A program made the translations under genes and the position numbers. A stretch of DNA of 64,000 nt from assembly GCA_958296165.1 (NCBI GenBank), contig OY282447.1, positions 4,873,154 through 4,937,153 on the forward strand. The letters are read 5' to 3'. The notes under the pieces were generated by a model. The model was not told the DNA's origin, made no database searches, and worked only from the letters and a program-made list of their open reading frames with translations. Source of the DNA: an uncultured Pseudomonadales bacterium. GTDB lineage: Bacteria; Pseudomonadota; Gammaproteobacteria; Pseudomonadales; Azotimanducaceae. This document shows positions 20,022 through 34,082 of this stretch, in pieces; the first letter of the stretch is position 1; the number at the start of each line of letters is the position of its first letter.

Positions 20022-22122
<2,101 letters not shown>

Positions 22123-22127
22123 CCGAC

Positions 22128-22475
22128 ATGCCCACTTTCTTCCAAGACTTGCCCGTGCTGGCCGCGGCGGCGCCGGCAGGCGGCGGCAGCCCCATGACCA
22201 TGTTCCTGTTTCTCGGCGGCTTCGCGCTGATTGCCTACTTTCTGCTCATCCGGCCGCAAAGCAAGCGCCGCAAAGAGCATCAAGCGCTGGTCTCCGCCCT
22301 CGCCAAAGGCGACGAAGTGGTGACCGCCGGCGGCATCACCGGCTCGGTCACTAAGGTGGAGGACGATTTCGTCAAGTTGGCCATCGCCAACAACGTCGAA
22401 ATCCGCATCCAGAAGGGCTCCGTCGGCGCGTCGCTGCCGAAGGGCACCCTCAAGACGCTGGATGAGAAGAAGTAA
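22128..22475 (+). CDS. yajC: Sec translocon accessory subunit YajC
   Basis: Small inner-membrane protein of the SecDF-YajC complex. It has one transmembrane helix (MFLFLGGFALIAYFLLIRP), then the conserved QSKRRKEHQALVSALAKGDE, VVTAGGITGSVTKVEDD and a basic/Lys-rich tail ending LDEKK. The 115-residue form from ATG 22128 avoids overlap with tgt; an in-frame ATG at 22107 would overlap it. Its last codons overlap the secD1 start by 14 bp. The same tail sequence reappears at the end of SecF1, marking the duplication junction. Confidence 0.95.
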   Translation: MPTFFQDLPVLAAAAPAGGGSPMTMFLFLGGFALIAYFLLIRPQSKRRKEHQALVSALAKGDEVVTAGGITGSVTKVEDDFVKLAIANNVEIRIQKGSVGASLPKGTLKTLDEKK

Positions 22476-24402
22476 CAGCGGCCTCACCGGCAGTTTGCTC
22501 GGCGTCGGACTGCCGGGCGGCAGGACGGGCGGCACCGCCTCGGGCCGCGTCGGCGCGTGGCGCTATGCGCTGCTAGCGGCGATCATCGCGGTCGGCTGCC
22601 TGTACGCAGCGCCCAATCTCTTTCCGCCGGACTTCGCCTTGCAGGTGACGGTGGACAACGCCGATCGATCGGTGGACGCCGACTTGCTGGCCGAAATCGA
22701 GGCACTCGTCGGCCAAGCGGGCATCGAAGTAATCGGCAGCGAACGGATTCCGGACGGCGGACTGATCCGCGTCACCAGCAGCGAGGATCAGCTCCGCGCC
22801 AGCGCCTTGCTGCGTGACCATCTCAACCCCGCCGGCGAGGAACGCCAATACGTCGTCGCTCTCAATTTGGCCTCGACCACGCCGCTGTGGCTGCGCGACA
22901 TAGGCGGCGAACCTATGGCTTTGGGGCTCGACCTCAAGGGTGGCGCCCACTTCGTTCTGCAAGTAGACATGGAACAGGCGCTTGCCAAGCGCCTAGGCGA
23001 CGAAGTAGAGAAAGTCAAAGACATGCTGCGCGAACAGCGCGTGCGCTATCGGCGCACCGACGATGCCGTTCGAGGCCACAGCATTCGGATGGGCTTTGTT
23101 ACGGCGCAGCTGCGCGATCGCGCCATCACGATCATTGAAGAGGAGTTTCGCGAGCCCAGCTACACCCTTGCCGAAGCCGATGTGGACGGCCGCCCGGGTT
23201 TCGTGATCACCGTGCAGCAGGCCAAAGTCGACGAGATCGAAAGCAACGCCATCGAGCAGAACTTGACCGGCCTGCGCAACCGCATCAACCAACTCGGCGT
23301 CGCCGAACCATTAGTGCAGAAGCTCGGCGGCTCGCGCATCGTCATCGATCTGCCCGGCGTGCAGGACAGCGCCGACGCCAAGCGCAAGATCAACAAGTTC
23401 GCCAATTTGGAGTTTCGCCTCGTCGCCGCAGCCAACGACCGGCCTTCGGAGATCGACGAATGGCCGTATGAAGGGCGCGTAGTGAAGTTGAACAAACGGG
23501 TCATCCTCACCGGCGACCGCGTCACCCACGCGGTGCAGGGGCGCGATCAAGAATCCGGCCTGCCGCAGGTGAACATCACGCTCGACAGCCAAGGCGGCGA
23601 GATGTTCCACGACGCCACGGCACCGAACATAGGCCGTGGCATGGCGGTGATCTTCATCGAACACAAGCCCATCGTCACAGTTGAAGAGATCGATGGCGAG
23701 CGCGTGGAGACGCACGGCAGCCGGCCCGAGAAGCGCGTGATCAGCGTCGCCACCATTCAGGCCGCGCTCGGCTACAACTTCCGCATCACCGGCTTGTCGC
23801 TGCGAGAAGCTCAGGAACTCGCCTTCCTGCTGCGCGCCGGCGCACTGGCTGCGCCCATGTACATCGTTGAGGAACGCACCGTCGGCGCGTCGCTCGGCGA
23901 AGAGAACATCGAACGCGGCATGTTGGCCGTGGTGGTCGGCTTCATCCTCGTGCTGGTGTTCATGGCCTTTTACTACAAGGTCTTCGGGCTGGTCGCGGAC
24001 ATCGCGCTAACGCTCAATCTGGTGATCCTGGTGGCCGTGATGTCGCTCTTGGGCGCGACGCTGACACTGCCGGGCATCGCTGGCATCGTCCTCACCGTGG
24101 GCATGGCGGTGGATGCGAACGTGCTGATCTTTTCGCGGGTGCGCGAAGAGCTGAAAAGCAAGCCGCCGGTGCAGGCCATCCAAGCCGGCTACGACCGCGC
24201 CTTCCTGACCATCCTGGACGCCAACGTGACGACGTTGTTCGTCGCCTTGATTCTGCTCGCCATCGGCAGCGGCCCGGTGGCGGGCTTCGCGGTAACGCTC
24301 TCCATCGGCATCGTCACGTCGATGTTCACCGCCATCTTCGGCTCCCGCGCGCTCGTCCATCTGATCTACGGCAGCCGTCGCGTCGAGAAGGTGCTGATCT
24401 GA
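22462..24402 (+). CDS. secD: Protein translocase subunit SecD, copy 1
   Basis: Proton-motive-force-driven subunit that helps pull preproteins through SecYEG on the periplasmic side. It has an N-terminal membrane helix (WRYALLAAIIAVGCLYAAP), a large P1 periplasmic domain with GLDLKGGAHFVLQVDME and ESNAIEQNLTGLRNRINQLG, and five C-terminal helices including GMAVDANVLIFSRVREEL. Length is 646, a little above E. coli SecD (615). ATG 22462 overlaps the end of yajC; the last base is shared with secF1 as TGATG. It differs from copy 2 mostly in the N-terminal half. Confidence 0.96.
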   Translation: MRRSNSGLTGSLLGVGLPGGRTGGTASGRVGAWRYALLAAIIAVGCLYAAPNLFPPDFALQVTVDNADRSVDADLLAEIEALVGQAGIEVIGSERIPDGGLIRVTSSEDQLRASALLRDHLNPAGEERQYVVALNLASTTPLWLRDIGGEPMALGLDLKGGAHFVLQVDMEQALAKRLGDEVEKVKDMLREQRVRYRRTDDAVRGHSIRMGFVTAQLRDRAITIIEEEFREPSYTLAEADVDGRPGFVITVQQAKVDEIESNAIEQNLTGLRNRINQLGVAEPLVQKLGGSRIVIDLPGVQDSADAKRKINKFANLEFRLVAAANDRPSEIDEWPYEGRVVKLNKRVILTGDRVTHAVQGRDQESGLPQVNITLDSQGGEMFHDATAPNIGRGMAVIFIEHKPIVTVEEIDGERVETHGSRPEKRVISVATIQAALGYNFRITGLSLREAQELAFLLRAGALAAPMYIVEERTVGASLGEENIERGMLAVVVGFILVLVFMAFYYKVFGLVADIALTLNLVILVAVMSLLGATLTLPGIAGIVLTVGMAVDANVLIFSRVREELKSKPPVQAIQAGYDRAFLTILDANVTTLFVALILLAIGSGPVAGFAVTLSIGIVTSMFTAIFGSRALVHLIYGSRRVEKVLI

Positions 24403-25334
24403 TGACAACCTTCGACTTCATGGGCAAGCGCCACATAGCGGCCGGCATTTCGTCGCTGTTGATCGTGGTGGCGATCGGCGCCGCCATCTTCGGTGGCCTG
24501 AACCCGGGCTTGGACTTCACCGGCGGCGTGAAGGTAGAGGTCGGCTTTCCGGACGCGGTGGACATAGAGCAGGTGCGCGACGTGCTTGTCGCCGAAGGCC
24601 TTGACAGCGGCGTGGTGCAGCACTACGGCTCCGAGACCGACGTGATGATCCGCATGCCGCCGGTGGAAGGCGTGGACCAATCGGCCTTGGGCAATGAAAT
24701 CGCAGCCGCCCTGGGAAGGAACTTCGACGGCGTGCAGCTGCGCCTGTCGGACTTCGTCGGCCCTTCCGTGGGCGAGGAGCTCACGGAGAGCGGCGGCTTG
24801 GCGCTGCTGGTGGCCCTTGGCGCGGTGATGATCTACATCATGTGGCGCTTCACCGGCAAGTTCGCGGTGGGCGCGGTGGCGGCCTTGATCCACGACGTGA
24901 TAGTGGTCGTGGGCGCTTTCGCCGTCTTCCAATGGTCCTTCAACCTGCCGGAGCTAGCGGCGCTGTTGGCCGTGATCGGCTATTCGCTGAACGACACCAT
25001 CGTGGTCTCGGACCGCATCCGCGAGAACTTCCGCACACTGCGCCGCGGCACGCCTGTGGAGATCGTCAATCGCTCCTTGAACCAAACGCTAGGCCGCACG
25101 CTGGTCACCTCGCTGACCACCTTGATGGTACTCGGCGCCCTGCTGTTGGCAGGCGGCGAGCAGATCTCCGGCTTCGCAACCGCGCTCAGCATCGGCGTGG
25201 TGGTGGGCACCTACTCATCGATCTACGTCGCCGCCAACGTGCTGTTGGCCATGGGCATCAGCAAGCAGGACCTGGCGCTGCCGGAGCGGGAGGGGGTGGG
25301 CGGTACGCTTGAGTCTCTGGATGAGAACCAGTAG
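24402..25334 (+). CDS. secF: Protein translocase subunit SecF, copy 1, with YajC-like tail
   Basis: Partner of SecD with six membrane helices: GLDFTGGVKVEVGFPDAVD early, then YSLNDTIVVSDRIRENFRTL and the last helices to LLAMGISKQDLALP. It is identical in protein sequence to copy 2 up to EREGV. It then continues with a different tail, GGTLESLDENQ, which aligns in frame with the YajC ending GTLKTLDEKK. The tail is therefore best explained as yajC sequence fused on when secDF was duplicated. The secD2 ATG (25321) lies inside this tail, copying the yajC/secD1 arrangement. Catalytic and helix motifs are intact. Confidence 0.95.
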   Translation: MTTFDFMGKRHIAAGISSLLIVVAIGAAIFGGLNPGLDFTGGVKVEVGFPDAVDIEQVRDVLVAEGLDSGVVQHYGSETDVMIRMPPVEGVDQSALGNEIAAALGRNFDGVQLRLSDFVGPSVGEELTESGGLALLVALGAVMIYIMWRFTGKFAVGAVAALIHDVIVVVGAFAVFQWSFNLPELAALLAVIGYSLNDTIVVSDRIRENFRTLRRGTPVEIVNRSLNQTLGRTLVTSLTTLMVLGALLLAGGEQISGFATALSIGVVVGTYSSIYVAANVLLAMGISKQDLALPEREGVGGTLESLDENQ

Positions 25335-27255
25335 CAGCGGCCTGACGGGCAACCTTCTCGGCCTGACGGGCAGTAGAACCAGAGGCGCGGCCCCAAGCCA
25401 CATCGGCGCGTGGCGCTACGTGCTGCTCGCCATCGTGATCTCGATTGGCGGCCTCTACGCATCCCCCAATCTCTTCCCGCCGGATTTCGCCGTGCAGGTG
25501 ACGGCCGACAACGCCGAGCGCTCGGTGGATGTTGAGCTCTTGGCCGAGTTGGAGCAACTCCTTGACGAGGCCGGTATCGCCGCCAGCGGCAGCGAACGCA
25601 CCACCGATGGCGGCCTGATCCGCCTCGCCGGCAGCGAGGACCAGCTGCGCGCCAGCGCCGTGCTGCGCGATCACCTCAATCTCTTGGGCGAGGAACGCCA
25701 GTACGTTGTGGCGCTGAACTTGGCGTCCACAACGCCGGAATGGCTGCGCAACCTCGGTGGCGAGCCGATGGCGCTCGGCCTCGATCTCAAGGGCGGCGCC
25801 CACTTCGTGCTGCAAGTGGATATGGAGCAGGCCCTCGGCAAGCGCTTGAACGACGAAGTGGAGAAGATCAAGGACATGCTGCGCGAGCAGCGCGTGCGCT
25901 ATCGGCGCGCCGACGACGCCGTGGCGGGCAACACCATCCGCATGGGCTTCGTGACCGCCGATCTGCGTGATCGAGCGATCCGGGTGATCGAGGACGAGTT
26001 CCGCCAGCCCAACTATCTGCTCGATGAGACCAACGTCGACGGCAGGCCGGGCTTCACCATCACAGTTCAGGAAGCCAGGATCGACGAGATCGAGAGCAAC
26101 GCCATCGAGCAGAACTTGACTGGCCTGCGCAATCGCATCAACCAACTTGGCGTGGCCGAGCCGCTGGTGCAGAAGCTTGGCGGCTCGCGCATCGCCATCG
26201 ATCTGCCCGGCGTGCAGGACAGCGCCGATGCCAAGCGCAAGATCAACAAGTTCGCGAATCTTGAGTTCCGCCTCGTGGCGGCGGCCAACGACCGGCCATC
26301 GGAAATCGACGAGTGGCCCTACGAGGGGCGCGTGGTGAAGCTGAACAAGAGAGTCATCCTCACCGGCGACCGCGTCACGCACGCCGTGCAAGGCCGCGAC
26401 CCCGATACTGGGCTGCCAGTAGTGAACGTCACGCTCGACAGCCAAGGCGGCGAGATGTTCCACGACGCCACGGCACCGAACATAGGCCGTGGCATGTCCG
26501 TGATCTTCATCGAACACAAGCCCATCGTCACCGTTGAAGAGATCGATGGCGAGCGCGTGGAGACGCACGGCAGCCGCCCGGAGGAGCGCGTTATCAGCGT
26601 CGCCACGATTGCGACTGCGCTGGGCTACACCTTCAGCATCACCGGCCTGCCCTTGCAGGAAGCGCAGGAACTGGCGTTCCTACTCCGCGCCGGGGCGCTA
26701 GCTGCCCCTATGTACATCGTCGAGGAACGCACCGTCGGCGCGTCGCTCGGCGAGGAGAACATCCAACGCGGCATGTTGGCCGTGGTGGTCGGCTTCATCC
26801 TCGTGCTGGTGTTCATGGCCTTTTACTACAAGGTCTTCGGGCTGGTCGCGGACATCGCGCTAACGCTCAATCTGGTGATCCTGGTGGCCGTGATGTCGCT
26901 CCTCGGCGCCACGCTGACGCTGCCTGGAATCGCCGGCATCGTGCTGACGGTGGGCATGGCGGTGGACGCCAACGTGTTGATTTTCTCGCGTATCCGCGAA
27001 GAGCTGAAGACGAGCGCGCCAGCGCAAGCTGTGCAGGCAGGCTACGACCGCGCCTTCCTGACGATCCTGGACGCCAACGTGACGACGTTGTTCGTCGCCT
27101 TGATTCTGCTCGCCATCGGCAGCGGCCCGGTGGCAGGCTTCGCCGTAACGCTCTCCATCGGCATCGTCACGTCGATGTTCACCGCCATCTTCGGCTCCCG
27201 CGCGCTCGTCCATCTGATCTACGGCAGCCGTCGCGTCGAGAAGGTGCTGATCTGA
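25321..27255 (+). CDS. secD: Protein translocase subunit SecD, copy 2
   Basis: Second intact SecD, 644 residues. It has the same architecture as copy 1: an N-terminal helix (WRYVLLAIVISIGGLYASP), GLDLKGGAHFVLQVDME, ESNAIEQNLTGLRNRINQLG and GMAVDANVLIFSRIREEL. The ATG 25321 (atgagaaccagtagc) corresponds to the copy 1 start. The N-terminal ~180 residues carry many substitutions (for example LDEAGIAASGSERTTDGG against VGQAGIEVIGSERIPDGG), whereas several 3' stretches are identical at DNA level. No frameshift or loss of key motifs is seen, so both copies should be functional. Confidence 0.95.
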   Translation: MRTSSSGLTGNLLGLTGSRTRGAAPSHIGAWRYVLLAIVISIGGLYASPNLFPPDFAVQVTADNAERSVDVELLAELEQLLDEAGIAASGSERTTDGGLIRLAGSEDQLRASAVLRDHLNLLGEERQYVVALNLASTTPEWLRNLGGEPMALGLDLKGGAHFVLQVDMEQALGKRLNDEVEKIKDMLREQRVRYRRADDAVAGNTIRMGFVTADLRDRAIRVIEDEFRQPNYLLDETNVDGRPGFTITVQEARIDEIESNAIEQNLTGLRNRINQLGVAEPLVQKLGGSRIAIDLPGVQDSADAKRKINKFANLEFRLVAAANDRPSEIDEWPYEGRVVKLNKRVILTGDRVTHAVQGRDPDTGLPVVNVTLDSQGGEMFHDATAPNIGRGMSVIFIEHKPIVTVEEIDGERVETHGSRPEERVISVATIATALGYTFSITGLPLQEAQELAFLLRAGALAAPMYIVEERTVGASLGEENIQRGMLAVVVGFILVLVFMAFYYKVFGLVADIALTLNLVILVAVMSLLGATLTLPGIAGIVLTVGMAVDANVLIFSRIREELKTSAPAQAVQAGYDRAFLTILDANVTTLFVALILLAIGSGPVAGFAVTLSIGIVTSMFTAIFGSRALVHLIYGSRRVEKVLI

Positions 27256-28166
27256 TGACAACCTTCGACTTCATGGGCAAGCGCCACATAGCGGCCGGCA
27301 TTTCGTCGCTGTTGATCGTGGTGGCGATCGGCGCCGCCATCTTCGGTGGCCTGAACCCGGGCTTGGACTTCACCGGCGGCGTAAAGGTAGAGGTCGGCTT
27401 TCCGGACGCGGTGGACATAGAGCAGGTGCGCGACGTGCTTGTCGCCGAAGGCCTTGACAGCGGCGTGGTGCAGCACTACGGCTCCGAGACCGACGTGATG
27501 ATCCGCATGCCGCCGGTGGAAGGCGTGGACCAATCGGCCTTGGGCAATGAAATCGCAGCCGCCCTGGGAAGGAACTTCGACGGCGTGCAGCTGCGCCTGT
27601 CGGACTTCGTCGGCCCTTCCGTGGGCGAGGAGCTCACGGAGAGCGGCGGCTTGGCGCTGTTGGTGGCCCTTGGCGCGGTGATGATCTACATCATGTGGCG
27701 CTTCACCGGCAAGTTCGCGGTGGGCGCGGTGGCGGCCTTGATCCACGACGTGATAGTGGTCGTGGGCGCCTTCGCCGTCTTCCAATGGTCCTTCAACCTG
27801 CCGGAGCTAGCGGCGCTGTTGGCCGTGATCGGCTATTCGCTGAACGACACCATCGTGGTCTCGGACCGCATCCGCGAGAACTTCCGCACACTGCGCCGCG
27901 GCACGCCTGTGGAGATCGTCAATCGCTCCTTGAACCAGACGCTGGGCCGCACGCTGGTCACCTCGCTGACCACCTTGATGGTACTCGGCGCCCTGCTGCT
28001 GGCAGGCGGCGAGCAGATCTCCGGCTTCGCAACCGCGCTCAGCATCGGCGTAGTGGTGGGCACCTATTCTTCCATCTACGTAGCCGCCAACGTGCTGCTG
28101 GCGATGGGCATCAGCAAGCAGGATCTGGCGCTGCCGGAAAGAGAAGGCGTGGAAGATGCGCCTTGA
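27255..28166 (+). CDS. secF: Protein translocase subunit SecF, copy 2
   Basis: A 303-residue SecF identical to copy 1 across the shared ~297 residues, differing at DNA level by scattered silent changes that become denser near the 3' end. It ends EREGVEDAP, probably the ancestral C-terminus. GLDFTGGV and YSLNDTIVVSDRIREN are intact. It overlaps secD2 by one base (TGATG) and converges with the GPH transporter gene, leaving only 6 bp between stop codons and no room for a terminator. Confidence 0.95.
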   Translation: MTTFDFMGKRHIAAGISSLLIVVAIGAAIFGGLNPGLDFTGGVKVEVGFPDAVDIEQVRDVLVAEGLDSGVVQHYGSETDVMIRMPPVEGVDQSALGNEIAAALGRNFDGVQLRLSDFVGPSVGEELTESGGLALLVALGAVMIYIMWRFTGKFAVGAVAALIHDVIVVVGAFAVFQWSFNLPELAALLAVIGYSLNDTIVVSDRIRENFRTLRRGTPVEIVNRSLNQTLGRTLVTSLTTLMVLGALLLAGGEQISGFATALSIGVVVGTYSSIYVAANVLLAMGISKQDLALPEREGVEDAP

Positions 28167-28172
28167 ACTCGC

Positions 28173-29591
28173 TCAAGCCGAGGAAGGCGACGCGCCAGCG
28201 CTGTTGCCGGCATCGAGCTTCTTGCGTATCTCGGCGTAGGCTGCTTCGTCTAACTTGAAGCGCGAAAACAGTATTGCGCCGATCGCGTAGCAAACCAGTG
28301 GGAAAAGGCCGTACAGGCCAACGATCCACACCTGCGTGGTCAGCGTTTGCTGTTGATTTGGCACGAAGCCGGAGAAGTCGAGCACAAAGCCGGTGAGCGC
28401 CAGCATGATGCCGGCGGCGCTCTTGTAGACGAAGTTCCAGGCCGCGAAATAGGAGCCTTCTTTGCGTTCGCCGGTAAGGTGTTCGTCGTAGTCGATGACG
28501 TCGCCCTGCACCGATGGCCCCACCGTGCCGCCGCAACCTGCGGCCAAGCCGGCGAACACGGCGAACACGATCATCGTCCCCAAGCGCAGTTCCGGCGGCA
28601 AGAAGGGCAGCATGAACATGGCACCGAAGGAAGCGCCAGTGCCGAGCATGGAGAACATCCACAGCCGCACTTTGCCGATGCGCCGAGAGAGCGGAATCCA
28701 AAGTGGCACCGAAAATGCCGAAGGGATCATGTAGGCGAGAATCACTGCCGGCCCCATGTGCGGCGCACCAACCACATACTGTGTGACGTAAAGCGTCAGA
28801 GCGCCGATCGCGGCAGAGCCGATGTTCTCGATCAACGTGACGATGATGAGCAGGCGCGAGTGTTCGTTGCGCCAGACGTCGGCGAATGCCCGCAAGGGGC
28901 TGGCACCGACGCGGCCCTGAAACTCCGGCCGTTCGCGCAGTTTCACCACCGCGAACAGCACCAATGCCGCCATCACCGCGCAGGCCGGCAGAGAGAGCGT
29001 GAGCGCCCAGTAGCGCGCGGCTTCGCCGCCCTCGGCTTCTGCGCCGATCAGCCACTGCATGGTGATTAGGCAGAAGATGTAGCCGAAGGTGTAGAAGCCG
29101 TGCCGGTAGCCGAACAGTCGGCTGCGCTCGTGGTAGTCGGTGGAGAGTTCCGCGCCGAGCGAGAGATGCGGCACGAAGAATACGGTCATCACCGAATAGA
29201 AGCCGATGATGGCGACCGCCATCCAAGCCACGAGCCAGCCGCCCGTCAACGCGGACGGCGGTGCGAAGATCATCACGAATACCGCGCCGATGGGGACGAC
29301 GCCGGCCGCCATCCATGTACGCCGTCGTCCGAAACTCGTGCGCGTGCGATCGGAGAGGTAGCCCACCAAAGGATCGGAGACGGCATCCCAGACGCGAGAT
29401 GCGCTGAAGATCAACCCCATCACCAACGGCGAGATCAACAGCACGTCGGTGGAGAACTTCATCACATACAAGCCGACCAAGAGGTACATGTAGCCGGCGC
29501 CGATGGCGGGCATGCCATAGGCCGCGATCGTCGTCGTCGGCAAACGGCTGGAAGCTCCCGCGCTGCCGGCGGCGCTTACGGTTAAGGCCAC
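28173..29591 (-). CDS. GPH-family (MelB-like) sugar:cation symporter
   Basis: A 472-residue major-facilitator protein with about twelve hydrophobic helices. The N-terminal motif SRVWDAVSDPLVGYLSDRTR, followed by FGRRRTWMAAG, is diagnostic of the glycoside-pentoside-hexuronide:cation symporters such as MelB. The GCGGTVGPSVQGDVIDYDEH segment matches the family's second-half motif, followed by TGERKEGSYFAAWNFVYKSA. Substrate is unknown. Translation starts with GTG 29591. No catabolic genes are adjacent, so context gives no hint of substrate. Confidence 0.9.
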   Translation of the reverse strand: MALTVSAAGSAGASSRLPTTTIAAYGMPAIGAGYMYLLVGLYVMKFSTDVLLISPLVMGLIFSASRVWDAVSDPLVGYLSDRTRTSFGRRRTWMAAGVVPIGAVFVMIFAPPSALTGGWLVAWMAVAIIGFYSVMTVFFVPHLSLGAELSTDYHERSRLFGYRHGFYTFGYIFCLITMQWLIGAEAEGGEAARYWALTLSLPACAVMAALVLFAVVKLRERPEFQGRVGASPLRAFADVWRNEHSRLLIIVTLIENIGSAAIGALTLYVTQYVVGAPHMGPAVILAYMIPSAFSVPLWIPLSRRIGKVRLWMFSMLGTGASFGAMFMLPFLPPELRLGTMIVFAVFAGLAAGCGGTVGPSVQGDVIDYDEHLTGERKEGSYFAAWNFVYKSAAGIMLALTGFVLDFSGFVPNQQQTLTTQVWIVGLYGLFPLVCYAIGAILFSRFKLDEAAYAEIRKKLDAGNSAGASPSSA

Positions 29592-30590: not shown

Positions 30591-33500
30591 CTACCAATCC
30601 AGCACTTTGAAGCCCGGCGGCCGGCGTTGGTCGAGGGCTTGTCCGCCGGGGTCGAGGCCGGGTATCTCGGCGACCGGCTCTGCATCGGGGGCCTGACGGC
30701 TCGGTTCCGGGCAACTGCCTTCGGCTCGATATTGCAGTGCGGCCTTGAGACGCGCCTCGTCGGCATCGCCCAACGGATGGTCGTAGTCGTCGAATACCGC
30801 GCAACCCGGTACGTCCGTGCCTTTGGGCCCCAGCGCGTTGGCTGGCGAGAAACCGTCGGTGAAGTCGCCGAAGCCCTTGGCGTTCACGCCCTTGATCTGG
30901 ATGGTGAAGTAGGTGGTGCCGCAATTATCGGTGGCGTAGAAGCCGTAGGGCTTGCCGCAGGTGGTGGCGCCGATCAGCACCACGTCCACATCGATGCCGC
31001 GCAGGCCGTTGACGATCGACTCGCTGGCCGAGCAAGTGCCCGGCCCGGCCAGCACGAACAACCGCTCTAAGTCGAGAGTCGGCAACGGCTCGCCGTCCGA
31101 CGCGGTGGACTCAAACAGATAGGGGCGCAGACGTTGACCGGTGACCGGATTGAACACTCGGTGTTTGTCGTTGAACTGCAAATCCTCGAACGTCCTGCCC
31201 CTTGCCGCTCGGCCAGCGATCATGGCGGCGAGGCGATTGGCAATGCTCAGCCGGCCGCCACCGTTGTAGCGCAGATCGAGTACCAGATCCGTGATGCGGG
31301 CGCTTGCGAAAGAGGCGACGGCGTCGATGAGCTGCGCCTCCGCAGTCGCGATGTGGTCGTTGAACAGCATGTAGCCGACCGGCCCGCCAGCGGTGCGCAA
31401 CACTCGGACGTGCTGGACCGGATCGATGGTGATGGCGGCGGCCCGCATGGTCACGCTGCGGGCTTCCTCGGCGCCGGGGTCCTGCACCATGAACTCGTGC
31501 GTTTCGCCAACTTCAGGGCGTAAGCCGGCGTTTAGCGTATCGACGTCGCTGCCGGAGCGCACGTCGACGCCATCGATCTCCAAGATCCGTGTGCCGCGCA
31601 CCAGCGCAACGGCAGCGCTCGTCGCCGGCGAGTTCGGCTCCGTGTAGGCAACGCGAATGTCGCGCGGCGGGCTGCCGCGCAGTATCACCAGCTCCGCGCC
31701 GTAGCCGCCGGACACGCCGGACTGCGACAGGGCGATCCAGTCGTCCGTATCGTATGTGAAGTGAAAGCGATCCCGCGGCCGCCCGGAGGGCGTTGTCGCG
31801 GTGGTCTTCAACAAGCCAAAGTAGTCCGGCGTATCGCAGCAGGCCGGGTCTCGATCGACGATTTCGTCGTACCACAGGTACGTATCGTTGCTCCACGAGC
31901 GCAGCCAGTTGTTCTCGTCGAGCATCGTGCCTCGTGCATCCTGCGTGTTGCCACGGGGCTCAAGGCAAAGGGCCCTGAACGAGGCGGCGTCCTCGAAGAC
32001 GCCCGGCATCCAGCCGCTCGGCGCGGGCGTCACCGCCGCCGGCATCTCGCCGGCGAGCCAAGGCAGCCGCCAGCCGCGCAGCAGCCGGTGCGGCGTTGGC
32101 ACCAACGTCGCCACGAGGCGCAAGGTCGCTCGGTTGCCGAAGGCGTCCGTAGCGGTCACCGTAATCCTAACCGTGCCTTCGGCGTACGCATCGGGCGTGA
32201 TGGTCAACGTGCCGTCTGCAATGGTGGCAACAGCCAGGCTAGGGTCGTCCGATCGTGCCGTGAACTGCAGGACTTCGTTCGCCCCGGCAGGGAACAGTTG
32301 ATTGAGAGAGCGCGTCCAGACATCGCCCGCTTCCAGCGTCAATTCGCCGTTCAGCGAGTTCCACAACGCCGTGCGCCGCATGAACACCTGATCGTTTTCG
32401 TTCCACTCGGCAAAGCCGATGCGGCGGCCGTTGGTAAGCCACGAGATGGCGTCGTTGAGGCGGGCGAGCAGGGCCGTATCGCGCACATCTACGGTGAAGC
32501 CGCCGTATTCCGCCTGCACGTCCACCGCGGTGACGACGAATCGGCCACGTTCCTCCTTCGCCGCGTCGCGGTTGCCGATCTCGCCGCGCGCAACGGCCGC
32601 TATCCTGCCGCTGCGCAAAGCGTCCAAGAGCTCGGATTCGCCATCCTCGTAGCCCAGATAGATGACCGTCGGCTTGGTGCGCACCGGCGGATGCAGGCGC
32701 AGCCGCCCCTCTAGATTGGCGGTCACCTGCGCGGATGTGATGCGGAACTTGCCACTGCCGTCCGCTCGCACCGTGCCCCTTGGGGTCTCGACGCGAGTGC
32801 CAGCGGCGAGCACTCCCTCATCGTCCGCTAAACCGACGATTTGCAGCAGACGCGCCTCGCCGGTGGTGCCGGCCAATACGCCTACGCGCACGTCGCTGGT
32901 GAGATCAGCGTAGCGGGCCAAGCGCTCTGCGTCCTCCCTGCGCACCAAGAGCGACTGGCGAAACGCAACATGCCCATTCGTGAAGGCGACGATGGTCTTC
33001 CCTGCCGCATCGCGTGTGCGGCTGTCGAGTATGGTGATGCCGCCGCCGACGATGTCGTACTCCGGCTCGGCCGAGCGCCGCCAGATGGGAACCACCCCGG
33101 GTTCTGCCCAGCCGGGGATGCCTTGCCGCGCGAACGAGAAGCCGACCCCGTCCAGCGCTTCAAGGGCGGTCAGCAAGTCTGCCTCGTAGCCGCGATGGGT
33201 GTTGAACCCCTCGTTGTCCTCATCTTCGTCGGCGCTGTAGCTGATGGGCCTGAAATAGGCATAGAAGCCGACGTTCAAGACTCCGTCCTCGACCGCACTG
33301 CCCGCATCGCGCTGCGGGTAGCCCGTCCACATCACCGTGTGCGTCGCGGTCTGCGCGGCAGGCGTGGTTTGATCCGTCACCGTTACTGCAATAGCCCCCG
33401 AGCCCTGAACGCAAGTGCCCGTTATCAACCTGCCGAAAGTGTGGCCACTCGCCCACGACGGCAGCCCCGAGTAGGAGTAAGACCGCAAGCCAACCCCCCC

Positions 33501-33941
33501 GCGCGGCGCCGGCAGAGGCCAAGCCACCGCCCGCCCGGCATCGCACGAGAACGACGACGATGACGATGACGATGTGTAACGCAACGGCCCGCTGCGCACC
33601 TCCAACCGCAGCGTGTAGTAGGCGTGCGTGTGTACCGCATCATTGGACAACGAGACATCCAACTTGAGCGTCCGCGACCGCGGCGCCGCCGGCACTGTGC
33701 CCGCACACGTCGCCGCGACGGACGTAGGCTCGGTGCAACTCATCCACGTCGGCAACCCGGACCAACGAAAACTCGGCCTGTCTTCGCTCCGCAGCCCCGC
33801 CGGAGCAGAGACCTCGTGCGAAAAACTCTGCCCCGGCACGATCTCGACCGTCTCGGTGGAAGGCGTGAACGAGAGATGCCCCGCCACAGCCGGCAGCGGC
33901 AGCACCAACAACGCCACCCCCCAACTAATCCAACGCCGCAT
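30591..33941 (-). CDS. Secreted chimera: solute-binding-like domain plus S41 protease
   Basis: A 1116-residue exported protein (signal peptide WISWGVALLVLPLPAVAG). Order: two Cys-containing Ig/cadherin-like segments (about 20-230); a family-3 solute-binding-like domain (about 235-500: GFYAYFRPISYS, YEADLLTALEAL, VGVLAGTTGEARL, DALRSGRIAAVARGEIG); a cadherin-like domain (ITPDAYAEGTVRITVTATDAFG); then a PDZ-containing S41 peptidase (about 690-1090). The S41 core has MLFNDHI, LVLDLRYNGGGRLSIANRLA, nucleophile Ser near 973 in GPGTCSASES and Lys near 997 in TTCGKPYG, the normal Ser-Lys spacing. It may be a ligand-sensing envelope protease. ATG 33941 follows a TTG in frame. Confidence 0.82.
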   Translation of the reverse strand: MRRWISWGVALLVLPLPAVAGHLSFTPSTETVEIVPGQSFSHEVSAPAGLRSEDRPSFRWSGLPTWMSCTEPTSVAATCAGTVPAAPRSRTLKLDVSLSNDAVHTHAYYTLRLEVRSGPLRYTSSSSSSSFSCDAGRAVAWPLPAPRGGVGLRSYSYSGLPSWASGHTFGRLITGTCVQGSGAIAVTVTDQTTPAAQTATHTVMWTGYPQRDAGSAVEDGVLNVGFYAYFRPISYSADEDEDNEGFNTHRGYEADLLTALEALDGVGFSFARQGIPGWAEPGVVPIWRRSAEPEYDIVGGGITILDSRTRDAAGKTIVAFTNGHVAFRQSLLVRREDAERLARYADLTSDVRVGVLAGTTGEARLLQIVGLADDEGVLAAGTRVETPRGTVRADGSGKFRITSAQVTANLEGRLRLHPPVRTKPTVIYLGYEDGESELLDALRSGRIAAVARGEIGNRDAAKEERGRFVVTAVDVQAEYGGFTVDVRDTALLARLNDAISWLTNGRRIGFAEWNENDQVFMRRTALWNSLNGELTLEAGDVWTRSLNQLFPAGANEVLQFTARSDDPSLAVATIADGTLTITPDAYAEGTVRITVTATDAFGNRATLRLVATLVPTPHRLLRGWRLPWLAGEMPAAVTPAPSGWMPGVFEDAASFRALCLEPRGNTQDARGTMLDENNWLRSWSNDTYLWYDEIVDRDPACCDTPDYFGLLKTTATTPSGRPRDRFHFTYDTDDWIALSQSGVSGGYGAELVILRGSPPRDIRVAYTEPNSPATSAAVALVRGTRILEIDGVDVRSGSDVDTLNAGLRPEVGETHEFMVQDPGAEEARSVTMRAAAITIDPVQHVRVLRTAGGPVGYMLFNDHIATAEAQLIDAVASFASARITDLVLDLRYNGGGRLSIANRLAAMIAGRAARGRTFEDLQFNDKHRVFNPVTGQRLRPYLFESTASDGEPLPTLDLERLFVLAGPGTCSASESIVNGLRGIDVDVVLIGATTCGKPYGFYATDNCGTTYFTIQIKGVNAKGFGDFTDGFSPANALGPKGTDVPGCAVFDDYDHPLGDADEARLKAALQYRAEGSCPEPSRQAPDAEPVAEIPGLDPGGQALDQRRPPGFKVLDW
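33550..33574. repeat. Trinucleotide-type microsatellite inside the S41 chimera gene
   Basis: A short GAC/GATGAC run on the plus strand encodes seven consecutive Ser on the minus strand, before FSC in the second N-terminal domain. It could vary in length by slippage without shifting frame when changes are multiples of three. Confidence 0.6.
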
Positions 33942-34082
33942 CAATCGCCCCGGCCATGTACCGCTCGCTCGAAGTATGCCCGATTGCCAGCGACCTTCCT
34001 GCTGTCAATTGGCGATGTCCAATGCTGGCACAAGGCGCGGGCCGAGCGACCAGAACGCGCAACCGCACCGGCGTTCGTGCCG

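What the first reader, a model, noticed from the sequence alone, without database searches (positions are those of the whole stretch)
22442..28166. Tandem duplication of secD-secF with a readable yajC junction
Two complete secD-secF pairs follow yajC. SecF1 and SecF2 are identical to EREGV, then SecF1 alone ends GGTLESLDENQ, which aligns in frame with the YajC end GTLKTLDEKK; secD2 then starts inside that tail just as secD1 starts inside yajC. The simplest reading is a duplicated unit from the yajC 3' end to the secF 3' end, fused at the secF1 end. Both pairs look intact, so the organism may run two SecDF complexes.
Basis: seen in the sequence. Interest (0 to 1): 0.7.

Follow-up and report, generated by a model that had tools for sequence, protein, structure and literature searches.

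The report
Tandem secDF duplication, homogenised by conversion
This bacterium carries two intact side-by-side copies of the secD-secF genes, which help pull proteins out of the cell; relatives seem to have duplicated the same genes separately but kept no whole second secF, and here that second secF has stayed nearly identical to the first by copying between the two.

Summary
yajC, secD1, secF1, secD2 and secF2 lie head to tail. Only SecF1 carries a tail copied in frame from the end of yajC, and secD2 starts inside it just as secD1 starts inside yajC. The copies differ at 24% of bases over 700 bases of the secD 5' part, inside a single-contig genome, so an assembly artefact is very unlikely.

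The event is old: dS is about 1 over SecD residues 1-260. Yet about 1 kb from the secD 3' end through most of secF is 99% identical, and the last 35 secF codons are diverged again. That is a gene-conversion tract, not a recent duplication.

Six of 15 congeners also have a secD copy just downstream of secF but no whole secF2; two of them keep a decayed secF2 start. Trees with the four intact second secDs reject one origin, so the block was probably duplicated about three times in one genus. Of the 16 genomes held, only this one has a complete second pair.

Both SecDs look constrained, so two working SecDF motors sharing one SecF sequence (dosage) is the likeliest function; this is inferred. A new variant of a known kind, moderately interesting.

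The parts
22107..22475 (+). yajC; its last 33 bases (22443-22475) match the SecF1 tail
22462..24402 (+). secD1, start codon inside yajC (14-base overlap)
24402..25334 (+). secF1, 310 aa, with extra yajC-derived tail GGTLESLDENQ
25299..25334 (+). duplication junction: secF 3' end fused in frame to a copy of the yajC 3' end
25321..27255 (+). secD2, start codon inside the secF1 tail with the same 14-base overlap as secD1 in yajC
27255..28166 (+). secF2, 303 aa, with the ordinary SecF ending of the genus
24194..25190 (+). gene-conversion tract, copy 1 (secD1 3' end to secF1 codon 263); 988 of 997 bases identical to copy 2
27047..28043 (+). gene-conversion tract, copy 2
23912..24048 (+). shorter converted patch in secD1, 137 of 137 bases identical to 26765-26901 in secD2

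Best explanation
An old tandem duplication of the block from the yajC 3' end to the secF 3' end gave yajC-secD1-secF1-secD2-secF2. Shown: the copied yajC tail at the junction, the old divergence of the secD 5' parts, and a later gene-conversion tract over the secD 3' end and most of secF. Shown by tree, with a reserve for conversion: other lineages of the genus gained a second secD next to secF separately. Inferred: the clade of G002, G003, G004 and G012 once had secF2 too, since two members keep a decayed start of it. Inferred function: both pairs are translated from one operon and form SecDF motors whose SecF is nearly the same protein and whose SecD differs mainly in the first transmembrane segment and the first part of the periplasmic region. 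The likeliest benefit is more SecDF; specialised SecD clients are a second possibility.
For: Junction and overlaps. Divergence: dS 0.99 and dN/dS 0.16 over SecD residues 1-260; dS 0.03 over SecF codons 1-263; dS 0.72 over SecF codons 264-298. Longest run of unchanged synonymous-capable codons is 90; the largest in 5000 shuffles is 51. Control: the SecF core differs from four congeners (G004, G007, G008, G013) at 30-47% of same-residue codons, against 2.4% (of 254) between the copies, while the last 35 codons differ at 34% between the copies. Congeners: a second secD after secF in 6 of 15, SecF single in 15 of 15. secF remnant right after secD2 in G003 and G002: 0 of 847 and 0 of 772 random placements score as well. 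The four intact second secDs as one clade: AU p 2e-52 (N part) and 8e-45 (full length). Both SecDs pass the cut-off of the five SecD Pfam models.
Against: After secD2 in G004, G012, G007 and G008 a secF remnant is not better than chance, so for G007/G008 a secD-only duplication is equally open. On the N part alone the pair G000_D1/G000_D2 is unresolved in the 19-row tree, and holding G000_D1 with the G007/G008 rows is not rejected (AU p 0.18); the full length rejects it (p 0.004), but conversion can pull the full length. Conversion in the N part could hide a shared origin. Over the last 35 SecF codons SecF1 is nearer to G013 (16% of 32) than to SecF2 (34% of 35), and SecF2 differs from G013 at 38%: too few codons to weigh, but it would fit a duplication older than that split or a faster secF2 end. 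Three of the six congener second secDs are broken (G002, G003, G007), so the extra copy can be dispensable. No expression data exist here.
Confidence: 0.73

Rival explanations
1. The second pair is a recent tandem duplication, and secD diverged quickly under relaxed or positive selection.
For: secF1 and secF2 are about 99% identical over most of their length.
Against: The divergence in secD is mostly silent (dS 0.99, dN/dS 0.16), and the last 35 secF codons are diverged at silent sites too. Fast protein change cannot explain silent change on both sides of a near-identical tract.
Confidence: 0.05
2. One ancient secDF duplication in the ancestor of the genus, with losses in most lineages and conversion making each pair look young.
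For: Conversion is demonstrated in this genome. Seven of 16 genomes keep a second secD after secF. The last SecF1 codons are nearer to G013 than to SecF2 (32-35 codons).
Against: Trees of the less converted N part reject a single clade of the four intact second secDs (AU p 2e-52). What precedes secD2 differs: a yajC-derived tail here; in G004 and G012 a spacer with no yajC tail, in G007 and G008 none beyond about 5 bases before the start.
Confidence: 0.2
3. SecD2 is specialised: its different N-terminal and periplasmic part serves other client proteins or other conditions, as with the two SecDF sets of Vibrio.
For: Divergence is concentrated in the first part of SecD (protein identity 78% there, 95% in the rest). 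Vibrio SecD1/F1 and SecD2/F2 differ in ion use and control (PMC11470409, passages).
Against: The same part is the faster one between species too. The motif around the conserved Asp of the membrane part is the same in both, SecF is identical over 299 residues, and secD2 starts inside secF1 so no leader like vemP lies directly before it.
Confidence: 0.2
4. Assembly artefact.
Against: Single contig of 5.07 Mb; the copies differ at 165 of 700 bases in the secD 5' part, which misassembly of one copy cannot create.
Confidence: 0.03

Closest known systems
Vibrio secD1-secF1 and vemP-secD2-secF2
   Same: Two complete SecD/SecF sets in one gammaproteobacterium (PMC11470409, passages seen).
   Different: There the sets differ in ion (the second putatively H+-driven) and the second is controlled by the VemP arrest peptide; here the sets are adjacent, secD2 overlaps secF1 by 14 bases and the SecFs are nearly identical.
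Streptomyces coelicolor secD-secF plus fused secDF
   Same: Two forms of SecDF in one genome, a second copy proposed to raise export capacity (PMC4139356, passages seen).
   Different: One fused and one separate form, perhaps by horizontal transfer or by older duplication and fusion; not a tandem copy.
Second, distant SecDF-like genes in the same order
   Same: 23 of 292 other sampled genomes of the order show a second SecF match at E <= 1e-30 (which scored at most 8 candidates a genome, so a lower bound; places).
   Different: On another contig or over 100 kb away in all 23; 21 of the 23 second matches are 33-41% identical to SecF2, 19 of these inside a frame of 760-873 residues; the other two (G280, G317) are 49% and 55%.

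Membership tests
SecD (Pfam SecD-TM1, SecD_1st, P1 head, Sec_GG, SecD_SecF_C; TIGR01129) | these models above curated cut-off in both copies | tested here: met
   the longer NF009545 model (cut-off 728) is not reached by either copy (510 and 520 bits)
SecF (TIGR00966) | above curated cut-off in both copies | tested here: met
   311.6 and 311.7 bits, cut-off 160
SecD/SecF motor | conserved Asp in the GMAVDANV motif of the membrane part (its role in ion movement is recalled, not from a call) | tested here: met
   both SecDs; SecF1 and SecF2 are identical over 299 residues
Vibrio-type regulated second SecDF | own leader gene for an arrest peptide directly before secD2 | tested here: not met
   secD2 starts inside secF1 with no gap; promoter scan found 0 sites with 1.0 expected, so it adds nothing
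Tandem duplication with gene conversion | sharp change of silent divergence along the copies, with a tract far more alike than expected | tested here: met
Two working SecDF sets | both copies expressed and assembled | not testable with these tools
   needs RNA or protein data

The most novel reading that the evidence does not exclude
The genus repeatedly gains an extra SecD rather than an extra SecDF: secF2 is dispensable and is lost, while secD2 is kept open in several lineages, so one SecF pool would serve two interchangeable SecD subunits with different periplasmic parts. In the window lineage conversion keeps secF and much of the SecD membrane part alike while the first part of SecD is free to differ.
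Probability: 0.25. Interest if true: 0.6.

Novelty: new variant of a known kind. Interest (0 to 1): 0.42.

Why it matters
Extra SecDF sets are known, but an adjacent pair with a readable junction, a conversion tract with both borders visible and about three apparent duplications in one genus gives a natural series for asking why cells want more SecD, and whether SecD and SecF must be made in equal number.

Tried and rejected
Recent duplication: rejected by silent-site divergence on both sides of the near-identical tract. Single origin of the four intact second secDs: rejected by trees, with the conversion caveat. LDENQ tail as normal for SecF: 0 of 15 congeners. Vibrio-like leader directly before secD2: no room, since secD2 overlaps secF1. 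Promoter scan: 0 sites found, 1.0 expected, uninformative. Tandem secD elsewhere in the family: of 206 genomes (at most 6 candidates scored each, 17 with no match at 1e-60), 8 outside the genus had two or more matches; one search puts them on different contigs in all 8. Four (G034, G110, G176, G180) look like halves of one gene; G121 and G138 overlap in part, and G119 (three full copies) and G220 (a 51% second copy) were not followed. Broken second copies below that threshold would be missed, as G002's was. Papers: the listings show no title or abstract start describing a yajC-secD-secF-secD-secF order; only PMC4139356 and PMC11470409 were opened, passages only.

Rows dropped: in the trees, G002_D1 and G010_D1 (cut by contig ends) and the broken G002, G003 and G007 second secDs were left out; one search also left out G020, G022 and G032. 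G001 and G006 have runs of N (238 and 46 bases) after secF, but a downstream gene follows within about 260 and 560 bases, so there is no room for a secD2.

Full report
What is there. The block reads tgt, yajC, secD1, secF1, secD2, secF2, followed by an MFS sugar-type transporter on the other strand. The window lies in a 5,069,597-base single-contig genome. secD1 starts 14 bases before the end of yajC; secD2 starts 14 bases before the end of secF1. SecF1 and SecF2 are the same for 299 residues; SecF1 then has GGTLESLDENQ and SecF2 has EDAP.

The junction. The 33 bases ending at the yajC stop match the end of secF1 at 24 places; no other of 127,935 placements in the window does as well. The 19 bases before the start codon alone match at 13, reached at 38 of 127,963 placements. 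SecF of all 15 congeners ends like SecF2, so the tail is derived. yajC has one match in the genome.

Age and conversion. SecD residues 1-260: dS 0.99, dN/dS 0.156. SecD residues 261-646: dS 0.37, patchy. SecF codons 1-263: dS 0.03. SecF codons 264-298: dS 0.72. In bases: 535 of 700 identical at 22545-23244, 988 of 997 at 24194-25190, 95 of 108 at 25191-25298. Ninety successive synonymous-capable codons are unchanged, more than in any of 5000 shuffles (maximum 51). As a control, the secF core differs from G013, G008, G007 and G004 at 30-47% of same-residue codons but by 2.4% between the two copies. The last 35 codons differ by 34% between the copies; between either copy and those four congeners they differ by 16-46%, the 16% being SecF1 against G013 (of 32 codons). 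So the pair is old, and about 1 kb was copied from one to the other later. The direction of copying is not known.

The genus. All 16 held genomes of the genus were searched at E <= 1e-40: SecF is double only in the window genome. A second secD directly after secF is present in the window genome and in G002, G003, G004, G007, G008 and G012, 7 of 16. In congeners it is open in G004, G008 and G012 and broken in G002, G003 and G007; breaks in such draft genomes could in part be sequencing or assembly errors. Right after secD2, G003 and G002 keep a decayed start of secF (0 of 847 and 0 of 772 random placements as good); G004 (69 of 761), G012 (50 of 804), G008 (169 of 819) and G007 (292 of 829) do not show it above chance. 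The G002 and G003 pieces are closest to the G004 second secD, and the two G007 pieces tested are closest to the first secD of G007 and G008. The place is the same: a reversed relative of the window's S41-peptidase frame (30591-33944) lies after the sec block in 11 of 15 congeners, with and without secD2.

Origins. In the 22-row trees the window's two SecDs pair with each other (support 89/84 on the N part, 96/92 on the C part). In the 19-row trees the pair is unresolved on the N part and 91/92 on the full length. G008_D2 sits with G007_D1 and G008_D1, and G004_D2 with G012_D2. One clade of the four second SecDs is rejected (AU p 2e-52 and 8e-45), and so is G000_D2 with G008_D2 (6e-46 and 1e-72) or with G004_D2 and G012_D2 (4e-8 and 4e-6). 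That the window's duplication came before the split from G007/G008 is not rejected on the N part (p 0.18) but is on the full length (p 0.004). About three origins is thus well supported, with the reserve that conversion can mimic separate origins.

Wider. In 206 family genomes (189 with a match) adjacent secDs were seen only in this genus; the 8 other genomes with several matches have them on different contigs. In 293 sampled genomes of the order, 24 had two SecF matches, the window genome among them; in the other 23 the two lie on different contigs or over 100 kb apart. Both first searches scored only a limited number of candidates a genome and their match tables are cut, so rarer cases may be missed. 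In G317 one match reaches a contig end and the other lies about 500 bases from one, so adjacency is not fully excluded there. Of 80 named-genome loci, 0 hold two SecF matches.

Organism. That such bins come from sponges is my recall, not a tool result.

Function. Both SecDs keep their domains and the conserved membrane Asp motif, and their divergence from each other is mostly silent. With one shared SecF sequence, the simplest use is more SecDF; different N-terminal parts leave room for specialisation. Neither is shown.

Noticed in passing
L049 (G003), L053 (G007), L048 (G002): Second secD genes after secF are broken in three congeners: 5' part missing, frame breaks, and internal loss.
   Followed up: partly
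window 28173-29591 (-): MFS (GPH-type) transporter abuts secF2 tail to tail, with 6 bases between; its nearest NCBIfam model (gph, 216 bits) is just under the cut-off of 231. It shows no listed match beside the sec block in the 20 congener and family loci searched.
   Followed up: partly
window 30591-33944 (-): 1117-residue frame with a Peptidase_S41 match and weak Ig-like matches, and by eye a solute-binding-like part; a relative lies after the sec block in 11 of 15 congeners.
   Followed up: partly
G000:C1:4094423-4096486 (L005, L007): A 1597-residue frame with two SecD_SecF_C matches, perhaps an RND-type transporter (a guess).
   Followed up: no
G119, contigs C52, C54, C70: Three full secD matches on three contigs in one family member; mixed strains or real copies, not resolved.
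   Followed up: no
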